Part shown: positions 4,866 to 34,420 of the stretch, piece after piece | Layout of the letters: each line of letters begins with the position of its first letter | Numbering within the stretch: the first letter of the stretch is position 1 | Assembly: GCF_020907405.1 (NCBI RefSeq) | Contig: NZ_JAJJOE010000004.1 | Span: forward strand, 372,001 to 436,000 | Reading direction: 5' to 3' | From: Arthrobacter sp. zg-Y769 | GTDB taxonomy: Bacteria; Actinomycetota; Actinomycetes; Actinomycetales; Micrococcaceae | Length of the DNA stretch: 64,000 nt | Notes under the pieces: generated by a model | Database searches by the model: none | Told to the model about the DNA's origin: nothing | What the model saw: the letters and a program-made list of their open reading frames with translations, nothing else | Position numbers and translations under genes: made by a program

Positions 4866-5675
4866 CTAGTGTGTCACTGCTGCCGACAATCCGCCGTCAA
4901 CGGGCAGGCACACTCCGTTGATGTACCCGGCCTCGTCCGAGGCAAGGAAGAGGGCCGCGCGCGCAACATCGAAGGAGTCCCCCATCTTTCCCGTAGGGCT
5001 CAGCTTGTTCCGCGCTGCCACCATGGCCTCAACCGATTCGTAACTGCCCGCGATCTGCTTGTACATCATCGGCGTTTCCATCAACCCGGGGGCAATTGAG
5101 TTGGCCCTGATCCCTTGTGCGGCGTATTCCAGGGCTACATTCACAGTGAACTGGATGAGACCTCCTTTACTCGCGGAATAGCTTGGATAGTTGTACCCCA
5201 GGTAACGCAGCCCGCCTATCGAGGCAATGTTCACAATCGACCCTCTGCCCTGTTCCAGGAACAGGGGCAGCACGTGTTTTGTGGAGAGGAAGGCTCCGGT
5301 TAGATTGACGTCGAGGACAAATTTCCATTCCTCCAGGGACATCTCCACCGGGCCTCCCATACGGGCGATTCCGACATTGTTGTGCAGGACGTGCGGATTG
5401 CCCAACAGGGCGACACACTCCTCCACTGCCGCCTTCACGGCATCGCTGTCTGACACGTCGGCAACAGCTCCACCCCACTTGCCGCCTGCCGGGCGGGCAG
5501 AGTCCAGGCACTTGAGCGTATTGGCCAGGGCACGCTCGGAAGCATCCACGATGAACACATCCGCCGCCTCTTGCGCGTAGGTCAACGCCGCTGCCAACCC
5601 GTTGTTCATTTCCCCTTCCTGCGATCCTCCCCCGAAGATGATGATGGTCTTGCCCGCCATCCGTCCCGGAACCAT
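4866..5675 (-). CDS. SDR family oxidoreductase, last gene of the TRAP/E1 catabolic cluster
   Basis: 269-aa short-chain dehydrogenase with an unusual cofactor loop: GGGSQEGEMNNG replaces the ordinary TGxxxGIG. This form occurs in an SDR branch and is not decay, because the rest of the enzyme is intact (HNNVG, catalytic Ser in NIASIGG, YSASKGG with Tyr and Lys, and a C-terminal GVCLPVDGG). The start is at 5675, two nt after the E1 beta stop, so it is translationally coupled. MAGK, five codons downstream, is an alternative start. It is likely to oxidise or reduce a hydroxyl/keto intermediate of the pathway run by the cluster; the substrate is unknown. Confidence 0.85.
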   Translation of the reverse strand: MVPGRMAGKTIIIFGGGSQEGEMNNGLAAALTYAQEAADVFIVDASERALANTLKCLDSARPAGGKWGGAVADVSDSDAVKAAVEECVALLGNPHVLHNNVGIARMGGPVEMSLEEWKFVLDVNLTGAFLSTKHVLPLFLEQGRGSIVNIASIGGLRYLGYNYPSYSASKGGLIQFTVNVALEYAAQGIRANSIAPGLMETPMMYKQIAGSYESVEAMVAARNKLSPTGKMGDSFDVARAALFLASDEAGYINGVCLPVDGGLSAAVTH

Positions 5676-5677
5676 GC

Positions 5678-6682
5678 TCAGACCTTTACCGTTGCATTGC
5701 GGAGAGCAAGAACGCTGGCAACTATCTCCGCCTCGGCAGGGATGACCGCACTTTCGAGCTTCTCGCTGTAAGGGATGGGGCTCCTGCTCCCGCCAAGGCG
5801 CCGAGGCGCCGCGTCCAAGTCATTCCAGGCTTCCTCCACCACGGAGGCAACGAATTCGGCACCCCACCCGTAGTCACGGACGGCTTCATGGGCAACAAGC
5901 AGATGCCTCGTTTTGCGCACCGAAGTGATGACGGTGTCCATATCGAAGGGGTACAAGGTTCTGGGATCGATAACTTCGATGCTGATGCCGTGTTCGTCCT
6001 GTAGGACTTGTGCGGCAGCGAGGGAGCGCTTCAGCATTTGCTGAGTTGCGACGACGGTTGCATCGGTGCCTTGCCGGGCGATGCGGGCCTGGCCAAACGG
6101 TATGGGCTCAAAGCTCACCGGCCCCTTGTCGTAGTACAGGTTCTTGTGCTCAAGGAAAATCGTGGGGTTGTTGCTGGCCACGGCAGTCCGCAGGAGGCCG
6201 TAAGCATCGCCCGGCGATCCGGGCACCACAACTTCCAGACCGGGAATGTGGGCAAAGAGGGTTTCCAGCGACTGCGAATGCTGGCCGGCCTTCCCTATTC
6301 CCGAACCTCCGTTTGTACGCAACACGAAAGGCACGTCGAACTGCCCGCCGAACATGTAGCGCGCTTTCGCGGCCTGGTTGATGATGCCGTCAAAGCCGAG
6401 GAAACTGAAGTCCGAATACATGATCTCGAGGATCGGCCGTGACCCCTTCATCGCAGCCCCGACGGCTGCAGAAATCATGACCTCTTCGCTGATGGGTGTG
6501 TCACGTACGCGGTCGGATCCGAAGTCGGTGACCAGCTTTTTGGTAACTCCGTAGATCCCTCCACCTGTGCCCCACGTGGTGATGTCCTCCCCCATCACAA
6601 ACGCAGTGGGGGTGTCCTCGAGGATGTCATGCAGCGCTGCATTCAGTGCGCGCCAGGTGCTGAGCGTCTTCACGGTCTTCAT
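5678..6682 (-). CDS. ThDP-dependent 2-oxoacid/acetoin dehydrogenase E1 component, beta subunit
   Basis: 334-aa transketolase-like pyrimidine-binding plus C-terminal domain protein, the normal size for the beta half of an alpha2beta2 E1 (PdhB/AcoB/BkdA2 type). Recognisable blocks are the N-terminal MGEDITTWGTGGGIYGVTK, DTPISE, the conserved LEIMYSDF region and the C-terminal VAHEAVRDYGWGAE. With the alpha subunit it would decarboxylate a 2-oxoacid or cleave an acetoin-like alpha-hydroxyketone and pass the acyl group to a lipoyl lysine. The start overlaps the alpha stop by four bases (ATGA). The cluster encodes a separate lipoyl domain but no E2 acyltransferase or E3, so the acyl acceptor route is unclear. 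Confidence 0.88.
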   Translation of the reverse strand: MKTVKTLSTWRALNAALHDILEDTPTAFVMGEDITTWGTGGGIYGVTKKLVTDFGSDRVRDTPISEEVMISAAVGAAMKGSRPILEIMYSDFSFLGFDGIINQAAKARYMFGGQFDVPFVLRTNGGSGIGKAGQHSQSLETLFAHIPGLEVVVPGSPGDAYGLLRTAVASNNPTIFLEHKNLYYDKGPVSFEPIPFGQARIARQGTDATVVATQQMLKRSLAAAQVLQDEHGISIEVIDPRTLYPFDMDTVITSVRKTRHLLVAHEAVRDYGWGAEFVASVVEEAWNDLDAAPRRLGGSRSPIPYSEKLESAVIPAEAEIVASVLALRNATVKV

Positions 6683-7656
6683 GCCACGGTCTCCTGATAT
6701 ACATCGGTTGTCGCTGTGGATACATCGGGGAAAGGTGAATTGCGGGCAAATTCCTCCGCGGCGTCCATCTCGCGGGATACTTCCGCCTGTATTTCCAGCC
6801 AGCGTTCCTGCGTCAGGACGTCTGCCTCAATGAGGGTGGCGACCAAGCGGGCAATGGGGTCTTTATCTCGCCACTGCTGAACCTCATCGGGTTTTCGGTA
6901 TATTTCCGTATCACCTGCCATATGGCCCAGATACCGATAAGTGTCGGCAACTATGAGGGTGGGTCCATCGCCGTCGCGCCCGCGCGCCACGGCGTCGGCG
7001 GCTGCACGGTAGACATCTTCCAAGTCCATGCCGTCCACATTCACAGAGTGAACTCCATAGGCAATGCCGCGCTGCGCCAGATCCGGTTGGGCGACCATCT
7101 GCTCAATTGACGCTGACTGGGCGTAATGGTTGTTCTCACAGACAAACAGCACGGGAAGATTCCAGATCGCTGCAAGATTCAGGGCTTCCGCCAGGACACC
7201 CTGGTTGGAGGCGCCGTCGCCAAAGTACGCAACGGAGACAGCTGTTGTGTTTTGCATCTTGGCGGCAAGGGCGGCTCCCGTAGCGAGGCCGATACCGGCT
7301 CCGACAATTCCGTTGGTGCCGAGGATTCCCAGCTCTTTCACGCCGATATGCATGGATCCACCCTTGCCCTGGCCGTACCCGTCCTGCCGGCCGAGAATTT
7401 CCGCCATGGTTCGCCCCGGATCGGAACCGCGAGCCAGGCAGTGTGCATGGCCACGGTGGTTACTCGCAATCGAGTCCTCCTCCCCCAGTGCCAGGGAGAT
7501 CCCGACGGCAACCGCTTCCATGCCGACCGAAGGGTGTGTTGAACCTCGGATTAGTCCTTCGTCGGCCAGTTCCGGCATTTTGCTTTCAAATTCCCGAATT
7601 GATGCCATAAGGCGGAGGCCCGCCATGCCGTGGTTGTGTGCGTCATAAGTTGTCAT
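6679..7656 (-). CDS. ThDP-dependent 2-oxoacid/acetoin dehydrogenase E1 component, alpha subunit
   Basis: 325-aa E1 alpha subunit. The ThDP/Mg motif is clear: it starts GDGASNQG and ends about 25 residues later in CENNHYAQS. ThDP-fold landmarks such as GKGGSMHIG and GIVGAGIGLATGAA match acetoin dehydrogenase AcoA and the PDH/BCDH alpha family. Length agrees with AcoA (about 325). Substrate choice (acetoin, pyruvate, branched-chain or another 2-oxoacid) cannot be decided from these motifs. It lies 9 nt after the lipoyl-domain gene and overlaps the beta subunit by ATGA, so alpha and beta are coupled for equal output. Confidence 0.88.
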   Translation of the reverse strand: MTTYDAHNHGMAGLRLMASIREFESKMPELADEGLIRGSTHPSVGMEAVAVGISLALGEEDSIASNHRGHAHCLARGSDPGRTMAEILGRQDGYGQGKGGSMHIGVKELGILGTNGIVGAGIGLATGAALAAKMQNTTAVSVAYFGDGASNQGVLAEALNLAAIWNLPVLFVCENNHYAQSASIEQMVAQPDLAQRGIAYGVHSVNVDGMDLEDVYRAAADAVARGRDGDGPTLIVADTYRYLGHMAGDTEIYRKPDEVQQWRDKDPIARLVATLIEADVLTQERWLEIQAEVSREMDAAEEFARNSPFPDVSTATTDVYQETVA

Positions 7657-7665
7657 GGTGTGCTC

Positions 7666-7893
7666 CTACGAAATAGTGGCGATGCTCTCATCGACCGAGA
7701 TGATGTCACCCTCTTTAGCTGTGAGGGATATGGTCCCGGCGCGGGGAGCAGTGATCTCGTTGCTGGTTTTGGATGTCTCCAGTTCGGCAATAGGCTGTCC
7801 CTCGGTGACCTCCTCGCCGTCCTCCACAAGCCATTCGGTCAGCTCGGCTTCTCCTTCATCCCCAAGGAAATCGGTAGTTAGTAGGACATTCAT
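7666..7893 (-). CDS. Free-standing lipoyl (biotinyl/lipoyl) carrier domain
   Basis: 75-aa protein consisting only of a lipoyl hammerhead domain. The modification site is Lys42 in ELETSKTSNEI, and the mirrored Gly turns (EDGEEVTEGQPI and KEGDIISVDES) are present. In E2 proteins this domain is followed by a peripheral-subunit-binding domain and an acyltransferase; here the gene stops after the domain. It overlaps the PPC-domain gene by ATGA and precedes E1 alpha by 9 nt, so it is probably the acyl acceptor or swinging arm for this E1. Catalytic E2 and E3 would have to come from elsewhere, or the acyl group may go directly to another acceptor. Confidence 0.85.
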   Translation of the reverse strand: MNVLLTTDFLGDEGEAELTEWLVEDGEEVTEGQPIAELETSKTSNEITAPRAGTISLTAKEGDIISVDESIATIS

Positions 7894-8831
7894 GCCAGTG
7901 CCTCTTTCTGGTGCTCGGGGAGATCGGTTCCCCCCGGGATGGGGTTGAGTTCCTGGATCAGGAGTTCAAAGGTGACAGCAACCGGGTTTTCCCCGGGGAC
8001 AAGGGTGCCTGCGTGAACCTGCCCGTATTTGTCGACAAGGGTGCAGTTGATGGTGACCTCCGGTTCGCCTGCCGTGTTCGTCGTGAGCAGCCCGACAAGA
8101 GTCGCTACTTCGGTACCAGGCCCCTCAACCCTGACCGGCCCCCGCTCTGCGGGCCCGGTGAGGGTTGCCCCGATGAGGCTGCCGATTCCGCCCCTGATGG
8201 CTGCGGTTCGTATGCCGGCGGATGCGCAAATGGTTTTGACGGCCGAGGTGATGTCCTCGTTGGGACAGACTCGGGCGATAACTGAGCGGCAAGTCTCTCC
8301 CCGCTCCCGCTGGTTTTCCGGCATGGTCGAATCCTTTACGAGTTGGGGCGTGAAAACCGGCATCGCAGTTTCGGGGTCGTCCGCACTAACGAGGTCGACG
8401 TCGTGCAAGGCATGAAGCACAACAACCGGGGGGCTCTGCCCGATCTGCGTTTCCGGCCAGATGTGGCCCGCCTGCAGCACCCCGTCCGGAGTGGTCCAGA
8501 GGCAGTGACTATGGATAAAGGGACTTCCGTCCCTGGAGCCCAAGGTGGCCGCACCGAGAATCAAATTGGCCTGGGGAGTGGTCCGGGTAGCGCTGTAGCT
8601 GACCGTTCTTTCATGTGTTCCGTCTGCCGGCACGCAGTAGCTGACAGGTGAAAGTGACCCCCCCGACAACTCGGCTATTCCGTTCCGCGCCCCGATGCCA
8701 TGCAATGCATCAAAGAGTTGGCTCACTAGGGGTTGTCCGGGCTTAAGCCGGATTACTGCTGAGGACATGCGTGACTCAAAGGCGATCAACCGCGGTCTAG
8801 TCTGCGGTCCAGGGTGAACAAGTGTCAGCAT
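7890..8831 (-). CDS. Tandem PPC (DUF296) domain protein of the TRAP/E1 cluster
   Basis: 313-aa protein with two PPC/DUF296 domains (about residues 25-165 and 180-296). Domain 1 has the metal-site style motif with His107, His109 and His123 (FIHSHC, then AGHIW). In domain 2 the equivalent region is HAGTL, retaining only His273, so it is probably degenerate. PPC domains form trimers and occur in plant AT-hook proteins and in uncharacterised bacterial proteins; no enzyme activity is established. I chose the ATG at 8831 because a predicted operator (8909-8921) lies inside the longer open frame that starts at 8930. The Shine-Dalgarno is weak at both starts. The gene overlaps the lipoyl gene (ATGA). 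Confidence 0.7.
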   Translation of the reverse strand: MLTLVHPGPQTRPRLIAFESRMSSAVIRLKPGQPLVSQLFDALHGIGARNGIAELSGGSLSPVSYCVPADGTHERTVSYSATRTTPQANLILGAATLGSRDGSPFIHSHCLWTTPDGVLQAGHIWPETQIGQSPPVVVLHALHDVDLVSADDPETAMPVFTPQLVKDSTMPENQRERGETCRSVIARVCPNEDITSAVKTICASAGIRTAAIRGGIGSLIGATLTGPAERGPVRVEGPGTEVATLVGLLTTNTAGEPEVTINCTLVDKYGQVHAGTLVPGENPVAVTFELLIQELNPIPGGTDLPEHQKEALA

Positions 8832-8908
8832 TGCGACTCGTTTCTTGCTCGAGGGTGGTGAGCAGTTACGAGGCCGGGTTCCGGGGTTTGGAATGACCTC
8901 TTTAGAAA

Positions 8909-8921
8909 TTGGTACTACCAA
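8909..8921. promoter_or_regulatory. FadR-type operator, perfect TTGGTA-C-TACCAA palindrome
   Basis: TTGGTACTACCAA is an exact odd dyad in the gap between the upstream SDR (ends 8950) and the PPC gene (start 8831). It matches the sites at 12844, 12914, 12935 and 13729. This suggests that the PPC-lipoyl-E1-SDR segment has its own regulated promoter. Confidence 0.6.
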
Positions 8922-8949
8922 GAGATGCAAAATAAGAGGGGTCCCACAT

Positions 8950-9714
8950 TCAGCCGATGGCAGCTCCGCCGCAGACCTTGAGAGTGTCGCCGGTGACGAA
9001 GGCTGCTTCGGGTGAAGCGAGGTAGGAGACGGCTGCGGCTACCTCGACGGGCGTTCCGAGCCGTTTGATGGCCTGGTTGTCAAAGGAGTAGCTCATGTTG
9101 TCGGTCATCGGCGTCTCGATAGGGCCGGGGGCAACGGTGTTGCAGGTGATGCCGAGGGTTCCGACTTCTTTCGCCACCCATTTGGTGAATGCGATGACCC
9201 CGCCCTTTGACGCTGCGTAGGAGGGGCCGGACCGTCCTGCCCCGTCCCCTGAGGCATAGGGGCCGCCCATAATCCCGCTGATCGAGCTGATGTTGATGAT
9301 GCGGCCATCGCCTTGGTTCTTCATATGGGGATAAATGGCCGCTTGGGTGAAAAGAAACGTTCCTCGCAAATTGGTCTCGATATCGCGAGTCCAGGTTTCG
9401 TCATCCATGGTTTCGAGGTCAATTCGCCCGCATGTGCCTGCATTGTTAACCACAATGTCGACTGTTCCGAAGGCGTCGACAACCGATTGCACGCATGCTG
9501 ACACCTCTGCCCGGCTCCGAACGTCTACGGCGGCCGTCATAACCTTCCTGCCCGTGCGGTCCGTGATGTCCCGCGCTGCCTCGGTGGCGTCGATGACGTC
9601 AACTATGCAAACATCGGCGCCCTGCTCGGCAAGACGCAAGGCGATCGCGTGTCCGATACCGCGGGCGCCGCCGGTGACGATTGCACTCTTTCCGGCGAGT
9701 GTTTCCACATTCAT
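8950..9714 (-). CDS. SDR family oxidoreductase (3-oxoacyl-ACP reductase/FabG-like) of the TRAP cluster
   Basis: 254-aa classical SDR. TGGARGIG is at residues 14-21, followed by NNAGTCG, the catalytic Ser in NISSISG, YAASKGG (Tyr/Lys) and the C-terminal VTGDTLKVCGG. The start is at 9714, where AGGAGG is correctly spaced; the in-frame extension upstream to 9783 is ignored. It follows the TRAP permease gene (DctM, stop at 9737) by 22 nt on the same strand, so it is likely to perform the first oxidation of the imported substrate, or the reverse reduction. The exact substrate is unknown. Confidence 0.85.
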   Translation of the reverse strand: MNVETLAGKSAIVTGGARGIGHAIALRLAEQGADVCIVDVIDATEAARDITDRTGRKVMTAAVDVRSRAEVSACVQSVVDAFGTVDIVVNNAGTCGRIDLETMDDETWTRDIETNLRGTFLFTQAAIYPHMKNQGDGRIINISSISGIMGGPYASGDGAGRSGPSYAASKGGVIAFTKWVAKEVGTLGITCNTVAPGPIETPMTDNMSYSFDNQAIKRLGTPVEVAAAVSYLASPEAAFVTGDTLKVCGGAAIG

Positions 9715-9736
9715 GTGGCCTCCTGGTTGATGCCCA

Positions 9737-11236
9737 TTACAGGCCGAGAAGATCGGGAAGGAAATTGCTGAGTGCGGGCACAAACGTCACCAGCATGAGG
9801 ACGCCGAGGCCCGCCAGGAAGAACGGCCAGATACCCTTGATTGCTTCTCCGAAGGGGATTTTGGCGATGCCGGCCGCAACGAACAGGTCGATCCCCACAG
9901 GCGGCGTGACCAGCCCAAGCGCAAGGTTAACCGTCATAAACACCCCAATTGTGGTCATGTCCATTCCCAGTTCCAGCAGCACCGGGACAAAGAGCGGGAT
10001 GAAGAGATAGAAGGCGGAAATGGCGTCCAGGAACATGCCTGCGATCAGGAGGACCAAATTGATGAGCAGGACAAGGATCACCGTGTTGCTGGTCAGCGAC
10101 AGAAGGCCTTCAGCAACGGTCTCTGCAATCTGATACTTCGTGATCACGTACGCAAAGAGTGTCGCTGTAGCGATGATGAACATAATGCGCGCGGCTTGCA
10201 CGCCCGCAGTGGCAAAAATCTTGTAAACATCCGCGACCTTCAGGTCCCTCATCACAAACAAACCGATAATCAGGGCATAGACCGCAGCCACGGCGGCCGA
10301 TTCAGTAGGCGTGAAGACGCCACCGTAGATTCCGCCCAAGATGATAAAAGGCATCATGAGCCCTGGGATGGCACGGACCAGCGCTTTACGGATCACTCGT
10401 GCCGGTGCCCGCGTGGTTCGGATTTGGATAGAGGTATCGTGCGGAATGTCCGCAAGGGTCATGGTGGCAGGATTCGCACGTTCCGGCCCGACCTCGGCGG
10501 CACCCTGACGCGGAGCGACATCCGGGGTCGATGGGGCTGCCCCTCCAGCATCGGGCGCTGTCCCACCCGCCGGATCTTTGGGACGGCCCAGGGCGTGCGC
10601 TGCGTGCAGCTTTGCACTTGCCTTGGCCTGCTCCATTTCCCTGGGCAAAAACCGGGCGACCAGGTAGAACGCAAGGCCCATGCACAGTCCCGGCAGCACA
10701 CCTGCGGCGAAGAGCCGTCCGATGGAGATGCGTTCGTAGTCGCTCGCTACTACGGCGAAGACGATGAATGCGATGCTGGGTGGGATTACGATTCCCATCT
10801 CGCCGGCGCTTGCCACCAGGGCTGCAGCATGCCGTTTTTTGTACCCGTGTTTTGCGAGAGCGGGGATTAGTATTCCGCCCAGCGCTGCCACTGTTGCCGG
10901 TCCCGATCCGGAGATCGAGGAGAACACCAGAGCCGCCAGAATGGTGGTGAGTGCGATTCCGCTTTTGCGGTGCCCGACGCAGGCGTCGGCGAGTTCGATC
11001 AGCCGGGCGGAGATGCCCGTCAGTTCCATGATGACGCCAGCCAGTATGAAGAACGGGATGGCGAGGAGAGTTTCGGAGGCCATTGATGCGTACATGATTC
11101 CCGACGACGGGAACAGTGCGTTCACGCCCTGCATGTACAGGATGGTTACTAAGGAGGAGATGCCCATCGAAAAGGCGACAGGAACACCGAGGAAAAGCAA
11201 AAGTAGGAATGATCCGAAGAGAACGAGCTCAAGCAT
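9737..11236 (-). CDS. dctM: TRAP transporter large permease subunit, DctM family
   Basis: 499-aa polytopic membrane protein, the ion-coupled large subunit of a tripartite periplasmic (TRAP) carboxylate importer. Family marks include an N-terminal hydrophobic hairpin, SGSGPATVAALGGILIPAL, PPSIAFIV and the C-terminal LGLVTPPVGIDLFVAAGIA. DctM proteins are normally about 425-430 aa; the excess is a Pro/Ala/Gly-rich cytoplasmic linker at roughly residues 200-280, between the two helical bundles. The start at 11236 has GGGAGGGTAACC upstream; the frame open to 11392 overlaps dctQ and is rejected. dctQ ends 4 nt before this start. Confidence 0.92.
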   Translation of the reverse strand: MLELVLFGSFLLLLFLGVPVAFSMGISSLVTILYMQGVNALFPSSGIMYASMASETLLAIPFFILAGVIMELTGISARLIELADACVGHRKSGIALTTILAALVFSSISGSGPATVAALGGILIPALAKHGYKKRHAAALVASAGEMGIVIPPSIAFIVFAVVASDYERISIGRLFAAGVLPGLCMGLAFYLVARFLPREMEQAKASAKLHAAHALGRPKDPAGGTAPDAGGAAPSTPDVAPRQGAAEVGPERANPATMTLADIPHDTSIQIRTTRAPARVIRKALVRAIPGLMMPFIILGGIYGGVFTPTESAAVAAVYALIIGLFVMRDLKVADVYKIFATAGVQAARIMFIIATATLFAYVITKYQIAETVAEGLLSLTSNTVILVLLINLVLLIAGMFLDAISAFYLFIPLFVPVLLELGMDMTTIGVFMTVNLALGLVTPPVGIDLFVAAGIAKIPFGEAIKGIWPFFLAGLGVLMLVTFVPALSNFLPDLLGL

Positions 11237-11240
11237 GTGG

Positions 11241-11756
11241 TTACCCTCCCGGCAGGAGCTGGCTTGAGCTCTGCTCGTCATGTTGAATAGCGGTGACGGC
11301 CATCTGCACCACTCGAACCATGCCCAGGACGGCTCCGAGGGGTAGCGCGAGCGACAGAAGCCACTGCGGCAGTCCGAGTGCCGGGGTTGCACGGCCCCGA
11401 TCGAATTGGCTAGCGACCATGTCCCACCCCAGCCACAGGAGGATGGCCAGGAAGGTGAACATCGCGACGGCTATCGCGATGACCACGATTTTGCGCAGGA
11501 TCGGGCGGGCAACGTCTTGGAGGATGGTGAAGGCCGGGTGTGCGTTCATGCGGATGGCGGCCGAGGTTCCGATCATGATCAGGTACACGGCCAGACCTAC
11601 AACGAGTTCGTTGCTCCACGAGAGCGAAGCATGAAGCGCATAACGGCTGACAACATTCACGAACGCCAGAAGCGTGATGCTCGCAAAGGTGGCGACAATC
11701 AGTGCGTTCTCGAGCGAAGTCAGCGTGCGGTCGAAAGTGGATGCGACTGCCTTCAT
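11241..11756 (-). CDS. dctQ: TRAP transporter small permease subunit, DctQ family
   Basis: 171-aa four-helix membrane protein of the TRAP importer. Hydrophobic segments are near residues 18-38, 50-66, 90-112 and 132-150, and helix 2 is preceded by the family-typical SWSNELV, a conserved Trp-Ser-Asn-Glu. It works with DctM in the membrane and docks the solute-bound DctP. The start lies 2 nt after the dctP stop, and its own stop is 4 nt before dctM, giving a tight P-Q-M order. Confidence 0.88.
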   Translation of the reverse strand: MKAVASTFDRTLTSLENALIVATFASITLLAFVNVVSRYALHASLSWSNELVVGLAVYLIMIGTSAAIRMNAHPAFTILQDVARPILRKIVVIAIAVAMFTFLAILLWLGWDMVASQFDRGRATPALGLPQWLLSLALPLGAVLGMVRVVQMAVTAIQHDEQSSSQLLPGG

Positions 11757-11758
11757 CG

Positions 11759-12769
11759 CTATTTGGGCTTCACTGCTTCAGCGAGATCTGCTGTCCACAC
11801 CGATTCATATTTGTCGTAAATCGGCCCCATGGAATCACGGAAGACGGAAACCTGTTCCTCATTGAGTTCGGTGACAGTCATCGTCGACTTCATTTCCGCG
11901 AGCTGCTCCTCGCCGCGTTCACGGTTGGTCTTCTTCTGCAGTTCGTTGGCCTCGGCGGCTGCCTTCTGAACGAGTTCTTTATCGGAATCGCTCAGCTCCT
12001 CATACATGTCCTTGTTCATGCCCAGCATGAGCGGGTCGTAAATGTAGTTCCAGACAGTCAGATACTCCTGGACTTCCATCAGGCCGTTGGAGGCAATCAC
12101 GTCGTAGGGATTCTCCTGGCCGTCGATGGTTCCGTTTTGCAGCGAGGTGAATACTTCGCTGAAGTTCATGGTGATCGGGTCTGCATCCATTGCGGAATAG
12201 ATGTCGAGGAACATGCTCGAGCCGGGAACCCGAAACTTCAATGCCTTCAGGTCCTCGGGGGCGACAATCTCTTTGCTGTTGTTCGTGATCTGACGGAACC
12301 CTGACTCCCCGAACCCAAGGAGTTCAACCCCCTGCTCGTTGGCGAGTTCCTTGTAGGCATCGAGTGCCCCGGCTTCAATGGCCGCGTCTGCTTCCTCGTA
12401 GTCCTTATAGAGGAATGGAGCATTGATGGCCCCGTATCGGGGATCAATGCCGGAGTAGATGATGGTTGAGTTGTAGGAAAAGGCTTTGTCACCGTTCATT
12501 AGTTGTTCGACGCCGGCAGCCGCATCTCCACCGGAGAGCTGCTCATTTGCGTAGACGTTAACCGTGATGCGTCCATCGCTCTCTTCATTGAGAATCTCCG
12601 CGAACCGCTCGGCACCCAAGTACCAACTCGACGTATCGCTTACGGTCACGGTGAAGTCCCAGTTATATGTCTCCCCTTCTTCCCCGGCACCTGCGTTACT
12701 GGATCCGGAACCACACGCGGTTAGCATCAGCGCGGCGGTCAGTACGGGAACAATGTGCTTCGCCTTCAT
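11759..12769 (-). CDS. dctP: TRAP transporter solute-binding lipoprotein, DctP family
   Basis: 336-aa extracytoplasmic binding protein. The N-terminus MKAKHIVPVLTAALMLTACG is a lipoprotein signal with lipobox LTAC (Cys19), expected for a Gram-positive TRAP receptor. The mature domain has the DctP/TAXI-like fold, including the carboxylate-clamp region where a conserved Arg is expected (KALKFRVPGS near residue 166-175) and the VTMNFSEVFTSLQNGTIDGQENP-type stretch with conserved Gly-Gln-Glu-Asn-Pro. The ligand is therefore likely an organic acid anion. The start at 12769 has AAGGAGGAGAAG upstream. The 5' region carries three regulator-like sites (12844-12947). Confidence 0.9.
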   Translation of the reverse strand: MKAKHIVPVLTAALMLTACGSGSSNAGAGEEGETYNWDFTVTVSDTSSWYLGAERFAEILNEESDGRITVNVYANEQLSGGDAAAGVEQLMNGDKAFSYNSTIIYSGIDPRYGAINAPFLYKDYEEADAAIEAGALDAYKELANEQGVELLGFGESGFRQITNNSKEIVAPEDLKALKFRVPGSSMFLDIYSAMDADPITMNFSEVFTSLQNGTIDGQENPYDVIASNGLMEVQEYLTVWNYIYDPLMLGMNKDMYEELSDSDKELVQKAAAEANELQKKTNRERGEEQLAEMKSTMTVTELNEEQVSVFRDSMGPIYDKYESVWTADLAEAVKPK

Positions 12770-12843
12770 TCTTCTCCTCCTTGAGTGATACTCCCCCAGC
12801 AACGGTGGTTGTCTGGCGGAGGGCGGTGCGGTGATGCGCGAGG

Positions 12844-12856
12844 TTGGATTAACCAA
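12844..12856. promoter_or_regulatory. FadR-type operator TTGG-ATTAA-CCAA
   Basis: TTGGATTAACCAA follows the TGG-N5-CCA pattern and lies about 75 nt upstream of the dctP start. It is one of three such sites in the intergenic region between dctP and its regulator gene. Confidence 0.55.
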
Positions 12857-12913
12857 GTTCAAACACAGGTGCAACGTCGGTGTGGCACTGCGAATACCCC
12901 CAGTGTGTCGTAG

Positions 12914-12926
12914 TTGGTACTACCAG
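12914..12926. promoter_or_regulatory. FadR-type operator TTGG-TACTA-CCAG
   Basis: TTGGTACTACCAG is nearly identical to the perfect site at 8909-8921. Its centre is 21 bp, two helical turns, from the centre of the next site (12935-12947), consistent with cooperative binding on one face of the DNA. Confidence 0.6.
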
Positions 12927-12934
12927 ACAAGAGT

Positions 12935-12947
12935 CTGGAGTAACCAG
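12935..12947. promoter_or_regulatory. FadR-type operator CTGG-AGTAA-CCAG
   Basis: CTGGAGTAACCAG has perfect CTGG/CCAG arms with a 5-nt centre. It is the second member of a 21-bp-spaced pair upstream of dctP. Confidence 0.55.
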
Positions 12948-13012
12948 ATTTAAATACTTTTGTGTGCGCAACCCCGCACGGCAGGAGCACGGGGGAAGCT
13001 CCTGCGGCTCCG

Positions 13013-13702
13013 CTAAGTCGTGTGATTTATGAGTTCATCAAGCCAGGAGAAGTGATCGTCAACGGCCATAACTGCGGCACCTTCATCTCCGGACTGCACC
13101 GCTTCCAGAATCGCCCGATGCAGGATGCGCATTCGGACCCGGTCCTGGTCGAGTGCGAGGTGCCGCATGGTATTGGACAGGACCGTCGAGAGGACCTTGG
13201 CGAAAAACACCAGCCCTTGCGATCCCGAGGCATTAAAGAGGGCTTGATGGAATGCCATGTCTGCCGCATGCAGTTCAGATGAGTCATCAGAGGCATCCAT
13301 GCGGTCCACCGCTACGGCCATGTGGGCGCAGTTGACGTGGTCAACTCGCCTCGCCGCTTCAATCGCTGCCTGCCGTTCCAGCGCCACACGAACCGGCACC
13401 AGGGAATCAACAGTTATTTTCGATCCCATCAGCCCCAGGGTCAGCACTTCACTAACCGTTTCCGGACGAAGCCCGATGACGAAAGTTCCAGCCCTGTCCC
13501 TTCGCTCCAAAACACCCAGCGACTCCAGCCGGCCTATCCGGTCTCGAAGAGCGGTCCGGCTCACATTGAACCGCAGCGCCTGCTCGCGTTCACTTGGCAG
13601 GCGGTCTCCCGGTTCCATAGTGACAATCTGATTCATGAGCATGCCCATGATCGCGTCGCCGAAAAGCAAATCCTGAGAAGCCGTAGGCGGCTGAAACTCC
13701 AT
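13013..13702 (-). CDS. GntR family regulator, FadR/FCD subfamily, of the TRAP cluster
   Basis: 229-aa regulator. The winged HTH is N-terminal (PSEREQALRFNVSRTALRDRIGRLESLGVLERR), followed by a helical FCD ligand domain from about residue 85, with metal-site-style His residues in ADMAFHQALFNASG and a C-terminal DDHFSWLDELI. Members bind small carboxylates. The start at 13702 is preferred because a TGG-N5-CCA site (13729-13741) would lie inside the coding frame if the more distal GTG were used; AGAAGG is upstream. It lies upstream of dctP on the same strand, separated by about 240 nt with three operator-like sites, and probably represses itself and the cluster. Confidence 0.88.
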   Translation of the reverse strand: MEFQPPTASQDLLFGDAIMGMLMNQIVTMEPGDRLPSEREQALRFNVSRTALRDRIGRLESLGVLERRDRAGTFVIGLRPETVSEVLTLGLMGSKITVDSLVPVRVALERQAAIEAARRVDHVNCAHMAVAVDRMDASDDSSELHAADMAFHQALFNASGSQGLVFFAKVLSTVLSNTMRHLALDQDRVRMRILHRAILEAVQSGDEGAAVMAVDDHFSWLDELINHTT

Positions 13703-13728
13703 GCGTTGATGGTACCTTCTGGGGCAAA

Positions 13729-13741
13729 CTGGTATTACCAC
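13729..13741. promoter_or_regulatory. FadR-type operator in front of its own gene (CTGGTATTACCAC)
   Basis: The core TGGTATTACCA (13730-13740) is a TGG-N5-CCA dyad located 27 nt upstream of the regulator start. It suggests autoregulation. Confidence 0.55.
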
Positions 13742-13828: not shown

Positions 13829-14674
13829 CTAGGCGTTCCAGAGTCCGTAGGAGTCCGCCAGCGAGGAGATCTTCTGGGCGCGGGCCAGGCGCGGCAGGTA
13901 GGAGCCGTCGCCCACCACGGCTCCGGCGGCATGCGCCTCCAGCAGCTCGTGGGCCCAGGTGATTTCGGATTCGCTCGGCGAGAGACCCTGATTGATGAAG
14001 TCCGTGGCCTCGGGCATCAGGCACAGCTTGCCGGTCATGCCCATGCTCTGCGTGACCTTGCAGGCTTCCAGCAGCTTTTCACCCAGTGCGCCGACGGTGG
14101 GACCGTCGATCGGGCCGGGCAGCTGGCCGACGCGGGAGGCGACCACGAGCTTGGAGCGGGCGTAGGCCAGTGCCATCGGATCATCCGAGGCGCCGGTGTC
14201 GCGGCGGAAATCGCCGACGCCGAATGCGAGGCGGAAGGTGCCCGGCGCGCTGGCGATGGCGGTGGCATTTTCAATACCCAGGGCCGATTCCACCAGGGCC
14301 AGCACCGGGGTGCCGGCCTGCAGGCGCATGGCGGTGTGCGTGACCTGCTCGGGCTTTTCGGTCATGGCGAGCATCACGCCGCGCAGGCCGGGGGCCTTCG
14401 AGAGGGCAGCGAGGTCATCGGCCCAGTAGTCGGTTTCGATGCCGTTGACGCGCACCCACGCGGTCATGCCGGTGGAGAGCGCCTCGACGACGCGTTCGCG
14501 GGCTTCGGCCTTGCCGCCGGCGGGAACGGCATCTTCCATGTCGAAGACCACCGAATCGGCCTCGGACGCCAGCGCCGGTGCAAAATTTGCTTCATCTGCG
14601 GCGGAGGCCAGCAGCCAGGAACGGGACAGTTTGGCGGGGAGGGCAGCTGCGCGGCTGTTTCGGAAGGGGGCCAT
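13829..14674 (-). CDS. HpcH/HpaI aldolase / citrate lyase beta-like (CitE superfamily) protein
   Basis: 281-aa TIM-barrel CoA-ester lyase-like protein. Diagnostic features are DSVVFDMEDAVPAGGKAEAR (acidic metal ligands), AWVRVNGIETDYWADD, LALVESALGIENA (Glu ligand) and the GVGDF-R-DTG loop. Typical CitE-like stand-alone proteins are 270-300 aa and include malyl-CoA, citramalyl-CoA and (3S)-malyl-CoA lyases or thioesterases. It lies 104 nt downstream of the allantoinase fusion on the same strand, so a link to disposal of glyoxylate from purines (malyl-CoA chemistry) is attractive but inferred. The specific reaction is not determined. Confidence 0.8.
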   Translation of the reverse strand: MAPFRNSRAAALPAKLSRSWLLASAADEANFAPALASEADSVVFDMEDAVPAGGKAEARERVVEALSTGMTAWVRVNGIETDYWADDLAALSKAPGLRGVMLAMTEKPEQVTHTAMRLQAGTPVLALVESALGIENATAIASAPGTFRLAFGVGDFRRDTGASDDPMALAYARSKLVVASRVGQLPGPIDGPTVGALGEKLLEACKVTQSMGMTGKLCLMPEATDFINQGLSPSESEITWAHELLEAHAAGAVVGDGSYLPRLARAQKISSLADSYGLWNA

Positions 14675-14778: not shown

Positions 14779-16938
14779 CTACGCCTCGCCCCGGCGCAGC
14801 AGCCGGCCGGCGGGAACGCCAGGGTCGACGTCGACGCCGGCCAGCAGCGTGCGGCGCACAACGCCGGTGAGCCGCTTCCCCGCGTACGGCGTGACCGGAT
14901 TCCGGTGCTGCAGAGCCGCCGGATCCACGGTGAAGGTTTCCGCCGGCGCGAAGACCGCGAAGTCCGCGTCCCGGCCCGGCACAATGCCGCCCTTCCGGTC
15001 CAGCCCGGCCAAAGCAGCGGGAGCCGCGGACATCCAGTGCACCACCCGCTCCAGCGAAATCCCCCGGGTACGGGCCTCGGTCCAGATCAGCGCCAGCCCC
15101 AGCTGCAGCGAAGACACCCCGCCCCAGGCAACACCGAAGTCCCCGCGCACCAGGTCCTTCAGGTCCTGGGTGCTGGGCGAATGGTCCGACACGATGCAGT
15201 CGATGGTTCCGTCCGCCAGGCCGGCCCAGAGCTGTTCCCGGTTCGCGTCCGCGCGGATCGGCGGGCAGCATTTGAACGCCGTGGCGCCGTCCGGAATCTC
15301 CTCGGCCGTCAGCGTCAGGTAGTGCGGGCAGGTTTCGGCGGTGAGGCGGACGCCGTCGTCCTTCGCCGCGCGGATCAGCGGCAGCGCCTCGGCGGAGGAC
15401 AGGTGCAGGATATGCGCCCGCGCTCCGGTGCGCCGTGCCGCCTCAATGACCTGCCCGACGGCGCTGTTTTCCGCTTCCGGCGGCCGCGAGGCCAGGAAGC
15501 CGGCGTACTGCGGACCGGCCGGGGTGTCCCGGATCTGGCCCGGGTCCTCGGCGTGGACGATCAGCAGGGCGTCGACGGTCTTCAGTTCGGCGAGGACGGT
15601 TTCCATTTCCGCCGGTTCCAGGTGCGGGAATTCGTCGACGCCGGAGTGGACCAGGAAGCATTTGAAGCCGAACACGCCGGCGTCGTGCAGGGGACGCAGG
15701 TCCGCTTCGTTTCCCGGAACGGCTCCGCCCCAGAACCCGACGTCGACGGCGGCCTGCGGCGCCGCGCAGGCCCGCTTGATCTCCAGCGCCTCCACGGTCA
15801 CCGTGGGCGGGATGCTGTTCAGCGGCATGTCGATCAGGGTAGTGATGCCGCCGGCCGCCGCCGCCCGGGTGGCCGAGGCGAACCCCTCCCACTCGGTGCG
15901 CCCGGGCTCGTTCACGTGCACGTGGGTGTCCACCAGTCCGGGCAGCAGCGTTTCATCGTCGGCCAGTTCCAGCAGCCGCTCCCCCGCCAGCCCGGCACCC
16001 AGGGGGACGACGGCGGCAATCGAGCCGTCCCGGACGGCCACTTCGGCCGGGACAATTCCTTCCGGGGTGAGGACGGCGTTGCCGCGGATCACCAGGTCGT
16101 AGCGGTCTGCCACCGGCTTCCCAGCGGCAGCCGCCTCCGGCTCCAACCAGTCAAACGCCCCGGAAACCGGCGCCGCGTATTCCAGCGACACCTCCCCGCG
16201 GTAACCGCCGCTGCGACTCGCCCGGATCCAGTCCGCCAGGGGCAGGGTTCCGGTTCCGGGTGCCCCGCGGCCGGGCGCATCGGCAATCTGGACGTGCCCG
16301 AACCGGCCGGCGTCGGCGGCCACCAGCGCCGCCACGTCGTCGCCGTTCACCGCCAGATGGTAGAAATCGGCGAGCAGCGCCGTGTTGGCGGCCCCGGCGG
16401 CGTGCATCCGGTCCAGCACCGCGAACACGTCCGCCGCGGTTTTCAGGGGATAGTCCGGGGCGCCGCTGAGCGGTTCCAGCAGCACGGTTCCGCCGAAGGG
16501 CGCGACGGCGCGGGCCCCCTCCAGCAGGTTCCGCCCGGCTTCGGCGTCCTGCTCCTGGGGGCTAAAGCGGGGGTTGCGGTTGCCGTAGAGGGCGTTGAAC
16601 AGCCGGCAGCCCAACCGTTCGCCGATTCCCGCCACCACCTGCACGTTGGCCCGGAAGTCCGCTCCCCGGTCCGGCAGGGAGGGCAGGCCCCGTTCGCCCG
16701 CGGGCATTGCCCCGGCGTCGAAGTTCAGGGCCCCCAGCCGCACCCCGGCGTCGCGGATGGCTGCCTCGAACTCCGCCACCTGCGCCTGCGGCGGCACCGG
16801 TTCGGTAAACGGCCACCAGAACTCCACGGTGTCGAAGCCCGCGGCGCGCGCGGCGGCCGGGCGTGCCAGCAGTGGCAGTTCGGTGAACAGAATGGAGCAG
16901 TTCACCGAGTATCCGGCGCGGGTACCGTCGTGCATCAC
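14779..16938 (-). CDS. Hydroxypyruvate isomerase - allantoinase fusion protein
   Basis: 719-aa single reading frame with two complete enzymes. Residues 8-265 are a hydroxypyruvate isomerase (Hyi, xylose-isomerase-like TIM barrel) with the expected metal ligands Glu155 (LLEPLSG), Asp191/His194 (ADFYH), Gln217 (HVQIAD) and Glu253 (SLEY). Residues 279-719 are an allantoinase (AllB, cyclic amidohydrolase): [10 protein letters not shown] with His339/His341, the carbamylated-Lys region [23 protein letters not shown] and the SDHSPS Asp. There is no stop or frame change at the junction (an Ala/Gly/Pro-rich linker near 268-277). Allantoin would be opened to allantoate, while Hyi handles the glyoxylate-derived hydroxypyruvate/tartronate semialdehyde arm. 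The start overlaps the AllE stop (ATGA). Confidence 0.88.
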
Positions 16939-17759
16939 CGGCCTCCCAGCAGGACCTGGCGGTTCACGTCCTTATAAAGGAGGTAGCGGAAGTTCGACGG
17001 GCCGCCGGCGTAACAGGCCTGCGGGCAGAACGCCCGCAGGGACAGATAGTCGCCTTCCTCCACCTCCACCCAGTCCTGGTTGAGCCGGTACACGGCCTTG
17101 CCCTCGAGCACGTACAGCCCGTGCTCCATCACATGGGTTTCGGCAAACGGAATCACGGCACCGGGTTCAAAGGTCACCACGTTCACGTGCATGTCATAAG
17201 CGACGTCGTCCACCGGGATCATCCGGGTGGTGCGCCATTTGTTGTCCGTGCCGGGCATCGGCGTCGGCGCGATGTCCGCCTCGTTGCCGAAGACCGGCGC
17301 CGGGGTGTGTCCCGGCAGCGGCTGGTGTGCCTTGCGGATCCAGGCGAACTTCGCCGGTTCCTGCCCCTCGTTGAACGCGCCCCACAGCGTTTCGGGCGGC
17401 AGGTAGGCGAACCCGCCCGGGGTCAGCACATGGTCCCGGCCCAGCCGGCGGACGGTCAGGGTGCCCTCGAGGACGAAAATAAAGGACTGCACTTCAAGTT
17501 CCGGTTCGGGCGCCCGGGAACCGCCGCCCGGGGCCACCTCCATCAGGTACTGGGCGAAGGTAGTGGCGCCGCCCGCCACCGGCCGGTTCAGGATCCAGGC
17601 GCGGGTATCGGTCCATTCGGGCAGCACGCTGACCACGATGTCCCGCAGCACGCCGCGCGGAATCACAGTGTAGGCCTCGGTGACCACAGCCCGTCCGGTG
17701 AGCAGCTCGGTCTGGGCGGGCAGGCCGCCCTCGGGGGCGTAGTAGCGGGGCGTGTTCAC
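16935..17759 (-). CDS. allE: (S)-ureidoglycine aminohydrolase, bicupin AllE
   Basis: 274-aa bicupin, the usual length. AllE hydrolyses (S)-ureidoglycine from allantoate to (S)-ureidoglycolate and ammonia, using Mn. Family features are the N-terminal [45 protein letters not shown], and the C-terminal metal cupin with [27 protein letters not shown] (His/Glu ligands). The start codon is a GTG at 17759 overlapping the upstream gene's stop as TAGTG, and its own stop overlaps the allantoinase fusion start. Allantoate amidohydrolase (AllC) is not visible in the window. Confidence 0.9.
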
Positions 17760-33160: not shown

Positions 33161-34420
33161 ATGGCAATCTCAACGGCGGACCCGGCGCCCCGCACCCGTA
33201 CCCGGATCCTCTGGTTCGCCCTCGGACTTCCGGTTGCGCTGGTTCTGGTGGTCCTCGGCGCGCAGATCCACGGTCTGGATTTCACCGTGTACCGGGAAGG
33301 CGCCCGGGCCTTCCTCGGCCTGGGCGAACACCGGCTGTATGACCCGTCCCTGGTCGAAACGGACACCCGCGGCCTGCCGTTCACGTATCCGCCCTTTGCC
33401 GCCCTGCTGCTGACGCCGTTCGCGGTCCTGCCCGAGGCCGTGGGGCTGGTCCTGCTGACGGCGACGTCGTGCGCCTGCCTGGTGCTGACCGCCGTCCTCG
33501 TTGCGCGCTACCTGCAGGAAAACGAAGTGCTGCCGGAGAAGCTGCACACCGCGCTGGGCGGCAGCGCCGGCGTGGCCGTCCTCGCCACTCTGCTGATCGG
33601 CGTGCTCGGACCGTGGCGCGAAGGCCTGGGCTTCGGCCAGATCAACCCGATGCTGATGCTGCTAATCGTCGCGGACCTGCTCCGGCCGGCGTCGTCAAAG
33701 GTGCCGCGCGGCATCCTCATCGGACTCGCGGCCGGCATCAAGCTCACGCCGCTGGCCTTCGGGCTGATCTTCCTGGTCCGCCGCGACTGGCGGGCCATCC
33801 TGGCCATGGGTGCCGCGTTCGCCGCGACCATTGCCGTCGGTTGGCTCGCGTCACCGGAGCAGTCGCGGGCCTTCTGGTTCGACTCGCTCTTCAATTCCGA
33901 CCGCGTCGGCGACACCACGGACATGTACAACGTGTCGCTGAATTCGTTCCTCACGCATCTGGGCACCCCCGAGGCACTGCAGCGTCCGCTCTGGCTGCTG
34001 GCCTCGGCCGCCGTCGTTGTGCTGGGTTTCCTCGCCATCCGCCGTTCGGACGCGCGCGGCGACACCCTGGCTGCGATCAGCGCGAACGCCGTCGTGATGC
34101 TCGCGATCTCGCCGATTTCCTGGTTCCACCACTGGGTCTGGATCGCGCTGGTGCTGCCGGCGCTGTGGGTGGCGGTACGACGACGGCGGGCCGGGGTCCG
34201 CGCCGCAGGCATCGCCCTGCTGGTGGTGCTGGTGCCGGTGTTTATGCTGTCCTCGATCACCGTCACGATGATGCTGACCGGCGTCGTCAGCGGCCAGGGC
34301 CCGGCAGCGCTGGAGCTGTTCACCGGTCTGGGCGTGGTGCTGCCGGTCGCGGCGCTGGCGTTCTGGGCCACCGCTCCGGTGCCGGCGCGTGACCATTCGT
34401 TGCATGGATACCTGCCATAG
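33161..34420 (+). CDS. GT87-like (DUF2029) polyprenyl-phosphate mannosyltransferase
   Basis: 419-aa membrane protein with about ten to eleven hydrophobic helices and the GT-C fold signature of actinobacterial alpha-mannosyltransferases: the early extracytoplasmic loop GLDFTVYREGARAFL with the catalytic-type Asp, PLTYPPFA-like PFTYPPFAALL, GQINPMLMLLIVADLL, AAGIKLTPLAFGLIFLVRRDW and SPISWFHHWVW. These enzymes take mannose from polyprenyl phosphate to extend lipomannan/lipoarabinomannan-type glycans. A TAAACT box 7 nt before the ATG suggests a leaderless message. The neighbours give no further clue. Confidence 0.82.
   Translation: MAISTADPAPRTRTRILWFALGLPVALVLVVLGAQIHGLDFTVYREGARAFLGLGEHRLYDPSLVETDTRGLPFTYPPFAALLLTPFAVLPEAVGLVLLTATSCACLVLTAVLVARYLQENEVLPEKLHTALGGSAGVAVLATLLIGVLGPWREGLGFGQINPMLMLLIVADLLRPASSKVPRGILIGLAAGIKLTPLAFGLIFLVRRDWRAILAMGAAFAATIAVGWLASPEQSRAFWFDSLFNSDRVGDTTDMYNVSLNSFLTHLGTPEALQRPLWLLASAAVVVLGFLAIRRSDARGDTLAAISANAVVMLAISPISWFHHWVWIALVLPALWVAVRRRRAGVRAAGIALLVVLVPVFMLSSITVTMMLTGVVSGQGPAALELFTGLGVVLPVAALAFWATAPVPARDHSLHGYLP

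What the first reader, a model, noticed from the sequence alone, without database searches (positions are those of the whole stretch)
4866..13741. Complete catabolic cluster with unknown substrate: TRAP importer + two SDRs + tandem PPC + free lipoyl domain + ThDP E1
One coherent minus-strand unit contains regulator, importer and six metabolic genes. The combination of a PPC/DUF296 protein with an E1-alpha/beta pair and a stand-alone lipoyl protein, without E2/E3, does not match acetoin, branched-chain or pyruvate operons known to me. The TRAP receptor implies an organic acid. A plausible scheme is SDR oxidation to a 2-oxo or alpha-diketo intermediate, cleavage by E1 and acyl transfer to the lipoyl carrier. 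The scheme and the role of the PPC protein are inference.
Basis: partly seen in the sequence, partly recalled or inferred. Interest (0 to 1): 0.75.

Follow-up and report, generated by a model that had tools for sequence, protein, structure and literature searches.

The report
Catabolic operon with PPC decarboxylase-fold enzyme
An actinobacterium carries a compact, self-regulated gene set that appears to import an unknown organic acid, oxidise it, decarboxylate it with a protein from a family usually labelled DNA-binding, and split the product with an acetoin-type enzyme; if shown, that protein family would gain a metabolic role.

Summary
The genes are real and in the stated order: gntR, dctPQM, SDR1, tandem PPC, free lipoyl protein, E1-alpha, E1-beta, SDR2. 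The dctPQM-to-E1-beta order recurs in five other genomes. One palindrome (TGGTANTACCA) precedes gntR, dctP and the PPC gene: three sites in 64 kb, none expected. No E2 or E3 lies in the window; candidates exist elsewhere in the genome.

Two results change the interpretation. E1 groups with acetoin dehydrogenases, not with four other E1 of the genome. After single PPC proteins, the closest solved folds found for the tandem PPC protein are acetolactate decarboxylases, then PTD012, a zinc protein recently assigned as a ketogulonate decarboxylase. An invariant HxH...GH triad fits a metal site.

Best model: TRAP imports a 2,3-dihydroxy or sugar acid; SDR1 makes a 2-hydroxy-3-oxo acid; PPC decarboxylates it to an acyloin; E1 cleaves that onto the free lipoyl carrier. 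Gene content, order, operators, E1 group and fold are shown. Substrate, chemistry and fate of the acyl-lipoyl group are inferred. In Alphaproteobacteria the same PPC type sits beside an acyl-CoA synthetase, usually with a thiolase and never E1, so its reaction could differ. New variant of a known kind.

The parts
13013..13702 (-). FadR-type GntR/FCD regulator (likely start ATG 13702; 13741 is an upstream in-frame GTG)
   Evidence: PF00392 and PF07729; start codons
13730..13740 (.). operator-like palindrome TGGTATTACCA before gntR
   Evidence: 3 in window, mean 0 in 100 shuffles
12915..12925 (.). operator-like palindrome TGGTACTACCA before dctP
11759..12769 (-). dctP, TRAP solute receptor
   Evidence: PF03480, TIGR00787 over cut-off; nearest solved chain 4p8b
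11241..11756 (-). dctQ, TRAP small permease
   Evidence: PF04290
9737..11236 (-). dctM, TRAP large permease
   Evidence: PF06808; TIGR00786 over cut-off
8950..9714 (-). SDR1, classical short-chain dehydrogenase (TGGARGIG, YAASK)
8910..8920 (.). operator-like palindrome TGGTACTACCA before the PPC gene; points to separate control of PPC-lipoyl-E1a-E1b-SDR2
7890..8831 (-). tandem PPC/PCC (DUF296) protein, 313 aa, acetolactate-decarboxylase fold, HxH...GH triad H107/H109/H123 in the N-terminal domain
7666..7893 (-). stand-alone lipoyl domain, 75 aa, ETSK motif with predicted lipoyl lysine K42, no cysteine
   Evidence: PF00364; ETSK, ETAK or ETGK in ten relative loci
6679..7656 (-). E1 alpha, acetoin-dehydrogenase-like ThDP subunit (NHRGHAHCLARG)
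5678..6682 (-). E1 beta
   Evidence: PF02779 and PF02780
4866..5675 (-). SDR2, short-chain dehydrogenase with an unusual GGGSQEGEMNNG nucleotide-binding motif

Best explanation
This is a catabolic regulon for an imported carboxylate, probably a 2,3-dihydroxy acid or sugar acid. DctPQM takes it up. SDR1 oxidises C3 to give a 2-hydroxy-3-oxo acid. The tandem PPC protein, a metal enzyme of the acetolactate decarboxylase fold, decarboxylates this to an alpha-hydroxy ketone (acyloin). The acetoin-type E1 cleaves the acyloin with ThDP to an aldehyde and an acyl group, which it passes to the free lipoyl protein in place of an E2-bound lipoyl arm. An E2 and E3 encoded elsewhere then release acyl-CoA and reoxidise the lipoyl group. 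SDR2 acts on a substrate stereoisomer or on the product. The FadR-type regulator controls the units through TGGTANTACCA operators. Gene content, order, the palindromes, the E1 group and the PPC fold are shown. Every reaction, and the binding of the regulator, is inferred.
Against: Profile comparison of PPC with acetolactate decarboxylases is no better than controls (E 0.017 against 0.049 and 0.39). Foldseek's 50 listed rows hold no acetolactate decarboxylase. Eight of the nine VIA alignments are to the C-terminal domain, which lacks the triad, and cover about 105-120 of 313 residues, so a shared active site is not shown in three dimensions. In Alphaproteobacteria the protein sits by an acyl-CoA synthetase in 11 of 11 fetched stretches, a thiolase in 8 of 11, a TRAP receptor in 1 of 11 and E1 in 0 of 11, so its reaction may differ. 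The E1 clade occurs without tandem PPC in loci L031-L034 and in the whole genomes of L031, L033 and L034. The relaxed palindrome also occurs in 13 unrelated loci. DctP is only 26% identical to 4p8b, on a poor model (pLDDT 60.3). No local E2, so the last step is unexplained.
Confidence: 0.4

Rival explanations
1. A 2-oxoacid route: an SDR oxidises an imported 2-hydroxy acid to a 2-oxo acid, E1 decarboxylates it and loads the acyl group on the free lipoyl protein; PPC does some other step.
For: E1a carries the general E1_dh family and scores best with a PDH alpha model, below its cut-off (341.5 against 393.85 bits); SDRs fit hydroxy acid oxidation; TRAP imports carboxylates.
Against: E1a groups with acetoin dehydrogenases and not with four other E1a of the genome; PPC is left without a role although its frame overlaps the lipoyl gene by 4 bases.
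Confidence: 0.22
2. PPC does a different metal-dependent reaction (isomerisation, lyase or hydrolase) on an intermediate shared with the alphaproteobacterial PPC/acyl-CoA synthetase/thiolase clusters; E1/lipoyl and synthetase/thiolase are alternative ways to cut the same carbon chain.
For: 11 of 11 alphaproteobacterial stretches have the synthetase and 8 of 11 the thiolase; four of six plasmid loci also have a TRAP receptor (L013, L014, L025 annotated); one fold can host other reactions.
Against: Two other branches of the fold, acetolactate decarboxylase and PTD012, both decarboxylate such keto acids (PMC12435205, passages).
Confidence: 0.2
3. A trimmed acetoin/2,3-butanediol operon that uses E2 and E3 from elsewhere; PPC and TRAP are accessory.
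For: Acetoin-type E1; both SDRs match the BudC butanediol dehydrogenase model, below its cut-off; E2 and E3 exist elsewhere in the genome; L033 keeps a stand-alone E2 catalytic domain beside lipoyl-E1a-E1b.
Against: No AcoX, E2 or E3 gene and no sigma-54 regulator among the ten genes; a carboxylate-type importer is part of the unit, whereas acetoin is neutral; the E1 clade has a long stem (0.8).
Confidence: 0.1
4. PPC is a DNA-binding or regulatory protein, as the family is often annotated, and takes no part in the chemistry.
For: Database names such as 'putative DNA-binding protein'; plant PPC proteins carry AT-hooks (abstracts in the listing).
Against: A GntR regulator and palindromes are already present; the invariant residues look catalytic; overlap with the lipoyl gene.
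Confidence: 0.08

Closest known systems
Acetoin dehydrogenase operons (for example L154 Mycetohabitans, L152 Enterococcus)
   Same: E1 alpha of the same broad group with the HRGHxHC motif; lipoyl-dependent
   Different: No E2, E3, AcoX-like kinase or sigma-54 regulator in the cluster; lipoyl domain is a separate 75-aa protein; TRAP importer, PPC and FadR-type regulator instead
Alpha-acetolactate decarboxylase (PF03306; 4bt2, 5xne)
   Different: No PF03306 match; histidine spacing differs; activity untested
PTD012/C11orf54, beta-ketogulonate decarboxylase (1xcr)
   Different: Different family (DUF1907); human pentose metabolism
Proteobacterial clusters of PPC with acyl-CoA synthetase (for example Sinorhizobium pSymB, L025)
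   Same: Tandem PPC of the same type; TRAP importer and SDRs in L025
   Different: Acyl-CoA synthetase and thiolase where the actinobacterial cluster has lipoyl-E1a-E1b; TRAP receptor in only 1 of 11 sampled alphaproteobacterial stretches
Single lipoyl-domain carriers GcvH and LbpA
   Same: Free protein carrying one lipoyl domain (PMC6067878, passages)
   Different: Neighbours are E1 genes; no cysteines, unlike most LbpA

Membership tests
Acetoin dehydrogenase complex | E1 alpha of the AcoA group | tested here: met
   Tree of 52 rows and motif; which operons are aco rests on their annotation and my reading
Acetoin dehydrogenase complex | E2 (AcoC) and E3 (AcoL) in the operon | tested here: not met
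   PF00198 and TIGR01350 searches of the own genome: no match in the window
Acetoin dehydrogenase complex | acoX, typical of acetoin clusters (PMC3543383, passages), and an AcoR regulator | tested here: not met
   None among the ten cluster genes; the regulator is GntR/FCD
Acetoin dehydrogenase complex | Cleaves acetoin | not testable with these tools
   Needs an enzyme assay
2-oxoacid dehydrogenase complexes | E1 groups with 2-oxoacid dehydrogenase E1 | tested here: not met
   Apart from four other E1a of the genome, three of which have an E2 catalytic domain within about 3 kb; their substrates are not shown
Alpha-acetolactate decarboxylase PF03306 | Match to the family profile | tested here: not met
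   PF03479 in 5 of 5 members; the only other family was Glyoxalase in one member, E 0.14
Alpha-acetolactate decarboxylase PF03306 | Fold | tested here: met
Alpha-acetolactate decarboxylase PF03306 | Three-His zinc site in the equivalent place | tested here: inconclusive
   Triad invariant in 12 of 12 and aligned with the HxH...GGH of AF0104; no 3D overlay was possible; profile comparison not above controls
PPC/PCC (PF03479) | Family profile, here in tandem | tested here: met
Stand-alone lipoyl carriers (GcvH, LbpA) | Separate protein with one lipoyl domain and acceptor lysine | tested here: met
   lipoylation itself not shown
Stand-alone lipoyl carriers (GcvH, LbpA) | Partner genes of glycine cleavage or hdr type | tested here: not met
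   None among the ten cluster genes; E1a and E1b are the partners in the window and in all nine loci of the clade
TRAP DctPQM importer | All three subunits | tested here: met

The most novel reading that the evidence does not exclude
Tandem PPC/DUF296 proteins are a new class of metal-dependent 2-hydroxy-3-oxo acid decarboxylases, a third enzymatic branch of the acetolactate decarboxylase fold, and here feed an acyloin to an E2-less acetoin-type E1 that works with a diffusible lipoyl carrier: an undescribed catabolic route with an undescribed architecture for a lipoyl-dependent dehydrogenase.
Probability: 0.35. Interest if true: 0.8.

Novelty: new variant of a known kind. Interest (0 to 1): 0.62.

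Why it matters
PPC/DUF296 proteins occur in bacteria, archaea and plants and are often annotated as DNA-binding. A co-regulated cluster in which one stands between a dehydrogenase and an acyloin-type E1, with a decarboxylase fold and an invariant histidine triad, makes an enzymatic role directly testable. The cluster also poses a clear question: whether an E1 can load a free lipoyl protein without an E2 of its own. It may lead to an unknown substrate of TRAP importers.

Tried and rejected
Tried without gain: paper searches for DUF296 with TRAP, lipoyl and E1 (0 papers), with acetolactate decarboxylase (69 papers, 20 listed, 17 of them on plant AT-hook genes), with acyl-CoA synthetase and thiolase (425 papers, none of the 20 listed holds DUF296), AF0104/ALDC, stand-alone lipoyl terms (3 papers, one used), acetolactate decarboxylase structures (one paper's passages read, not about its zinc site), 4P8B. 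Profile comparison of PPC with acetolactate decarboxylases was not above controls. SDR structures gave no substrate. The DctP model was poor, so its fold ranking only repeats the sequence ranking. A single-sequence PPC search in Actinomycetota found only the own genome, 1 of 396.

Considered and rejected: an ordinary acetoin operon (no E2, E3, AcoX or AcoR in the cluster); inclusion of the neighbouring HpcH, Hyi-AllB, RraA, DLH or TetR genes (none near the cluster in 9 of 9 loci); a further regulon member at C19:29298 (the palindrome lies inside a 605-aa frame; the reversed control pattern occurs 10 times in the genome against 4, so the genome-wide count alone is no evidence).

Rows left out of counts: the tree used 39 of the 80 loci and four of six other own E1a matches (L117 gave no alignment, the weak L118 was not tried). 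The 12-row PPC alignment left out L014 and the split PPC pairs. Six of 63 plasmid records with a PPC match were read.
Full report
Observation. Refined starts are gntR 13702, dctP 12769, dctM 11236, SDR1 9714 and PPC 8831. The genes fall into gntR, dctPQM-SDR1, and PPC-lipoyl-E1a-E1b-SDR2, with a 118-base gap before PPC and spacings of -4, 9, -4 and 2 bases inside the last unit.

Regulation. The palindrome TGGTANTACCA occurs three times in the window, before gntR, dctP and PPC; the mean in 100 shuffles is 0. The relaxed form TGGTNNNACCA occurs four times against 0.6 expected; the fourth, at 34121, is unrelated. A scan of 155 loci for the relaxed form lists 27. Six are distinct loci of the E1 clade (L026, L028, L029, L030, L031, L032) with ten sites, each before dctP, SDR2, PPC or the lipoyl gene (gene positions). 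Eight are copies or overlapping fetches of these or of the window. Thirteen are unrelated loci, so the relaxed form is not specific. L020, L033 and L034 have none. In the own genome the strict form has four places, three here and one inside a long frame on C19.

Distribution. E1a at E <= 1e-90 was found in 4 of 395 genomes of the window's family, own included. The genome-contig scan kept 80 of 289 confirmed loci. Nine loci are 61-76% identical; the rest are 50% or less. The order dctPQM-SDR1-PPC-lipoyl-E1a-E1b is found in L026/L027, L028, L029, L030 and L020, with SDR2 and GntR present in each but placed variably. L032 has TRAP, SDR2, lipoyl-E1a-E1b and a single-domain PPC with HFH...GH just upstream of GntR. 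L031 has SDR2-lipoyl-E1a-E1b followed by two ETF genes and a cytochrome b561-like gene. L033 has lipoyl-E1a-E1b followed by a stand-alone E2 catalytic domain. Lipoyl-E1a-E1b thus looks like a module, and TRAP-SDR1-PPC an addition.

E1 group. In a tree of 52 E1a rows the window and nine relatives form a clade (100/100) within a group of 48 that holds Mycetohabitans L154 (sigma-54 regulator, NAD kinase-like gene, E1a, E1b, annotated acetoin dehydrogenase E2) and Enterococcus L152 (sigma-54 regulator, E3, E1a, E1b, E2, 2,3-butanediol dehydrogenase). The names AcoR and AcoX for the first two genes are my reading. Four other E1a of the genome stand apart, on a 100/100 branch. The motif is HRGHGHC in L152 and L154, HRGHAHC in the window, and TYR or SYR in the four own E1a. 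Not all relatives fit: L023 and L024 and L155 deviate, and L026 and L030 have T for C. E2 catalytic domains and lipoamide dehydrogenases of the genome lie outside the window.

Proteobacterial relatives. In a sample of the class of G789, an Azospirillaceae genome, 11 of 289 genomes had a tandem or split PPC. In the stretches fetched around them an acyl-CoA synthetase lies nearby in 11 of 11, a thiolase in 8 of 11 (in L145 about 5 kb away), a TRAP receptor in 1 of 11, E1 or lipoyl genes in 0 of 11. Of six plasmid loci read, five have the synthetase, four the thiolase, four a TRAP receptor, none E1; L014 and L025 among them supplied the query proteins. This is the strongest reason for caution about the PPC reaction.

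Importer. DctP's nearest solved relative is 4p8b (E 5.1e-47), then 4p47 and 7bbr, the last titled a sugar acid binding protein. The fold ranking also puts 4p8b first although the model is poor. A review lists 2-acetolactate and six-carbon aldonic acids among TRAP ligands (PMC5812351, passage). I recall that 4p8b was solved with 2-acetolactate; no call shows it.

Mechanism. I propose import, SDR1 oxidation to a 2-hydroxy-3-oxo acid, PPC decarboxylation to an acyloin, and E1 cleavage onto the free lipoyl protein, with E2/E3 in trans. All reactions are inference from families and context. The free lipoyl protein is comparable to GcvH and LbpA as a single-domain carrier (PMC6067878, passages) but has other partners. 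It also resembles a detached E2 lipoyl domain, as in L033.

Verdict. By membership it is neither an acetoin dehydrogenase operon nor an acetolactate decarboxylase, but it most likely works like the two in series. No paper on this gene set turned up in the listings, which cover only openly licensed PMC papers.

Noticed in passing
window 14779-16938 (-): A 719-aa fusion of a xylose-isomerase-like TIM barrel and an amidohydrolase, next to a two-cupin protein (16935-17759) and an HpcH/HpaI protein (13829-14674); I read it as a hydroxypyruvate isomerase-allantoinase fusion in a purine/allantoin unit.
   Followed up: partly
L026 and L027: Two identical 20,960-base copies of the cluster and flanks, about 236 kb apart and inverted on one Agrococcus contig; a recent duplication or an assembly artefact.
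   Followed up: partly
window 4866-5675 (-): SDR2 and its orthologues have GGGSxxGxxNNG in place of the usual TGxxxGxG: exact in the window and five of seven relatives, slightly changed in L026 and L030.
   Followed up: partly
L119 (G000:C6:43000-54000): A second E1a-E1b-lipoyl set without an E2 catalytic domain in the same genome; the lipoyl frame is 150 aa and is followed by an alpha/beta hydrolase-like frame, which looks like a split AcoC-type E2 (the hydrolase name is my reading).
   Followed up: no
L137-L147, L010, L012-L014, L025: Proteobacterial loci with tandem or split PPC beside an acyl-CoA synthetase, often a thiolase and in several cases TRAP and SDR genes: possibly an undescribed catabolic pathway.
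   Followed up: partly
L031:12033-14727: ETF beta, ETF alpha and a cytochrome b561-like gene directly after lipoyl-E1a-E1b, which may be a flavin/quinone electron route in place of E3 there.
   Followed up: no
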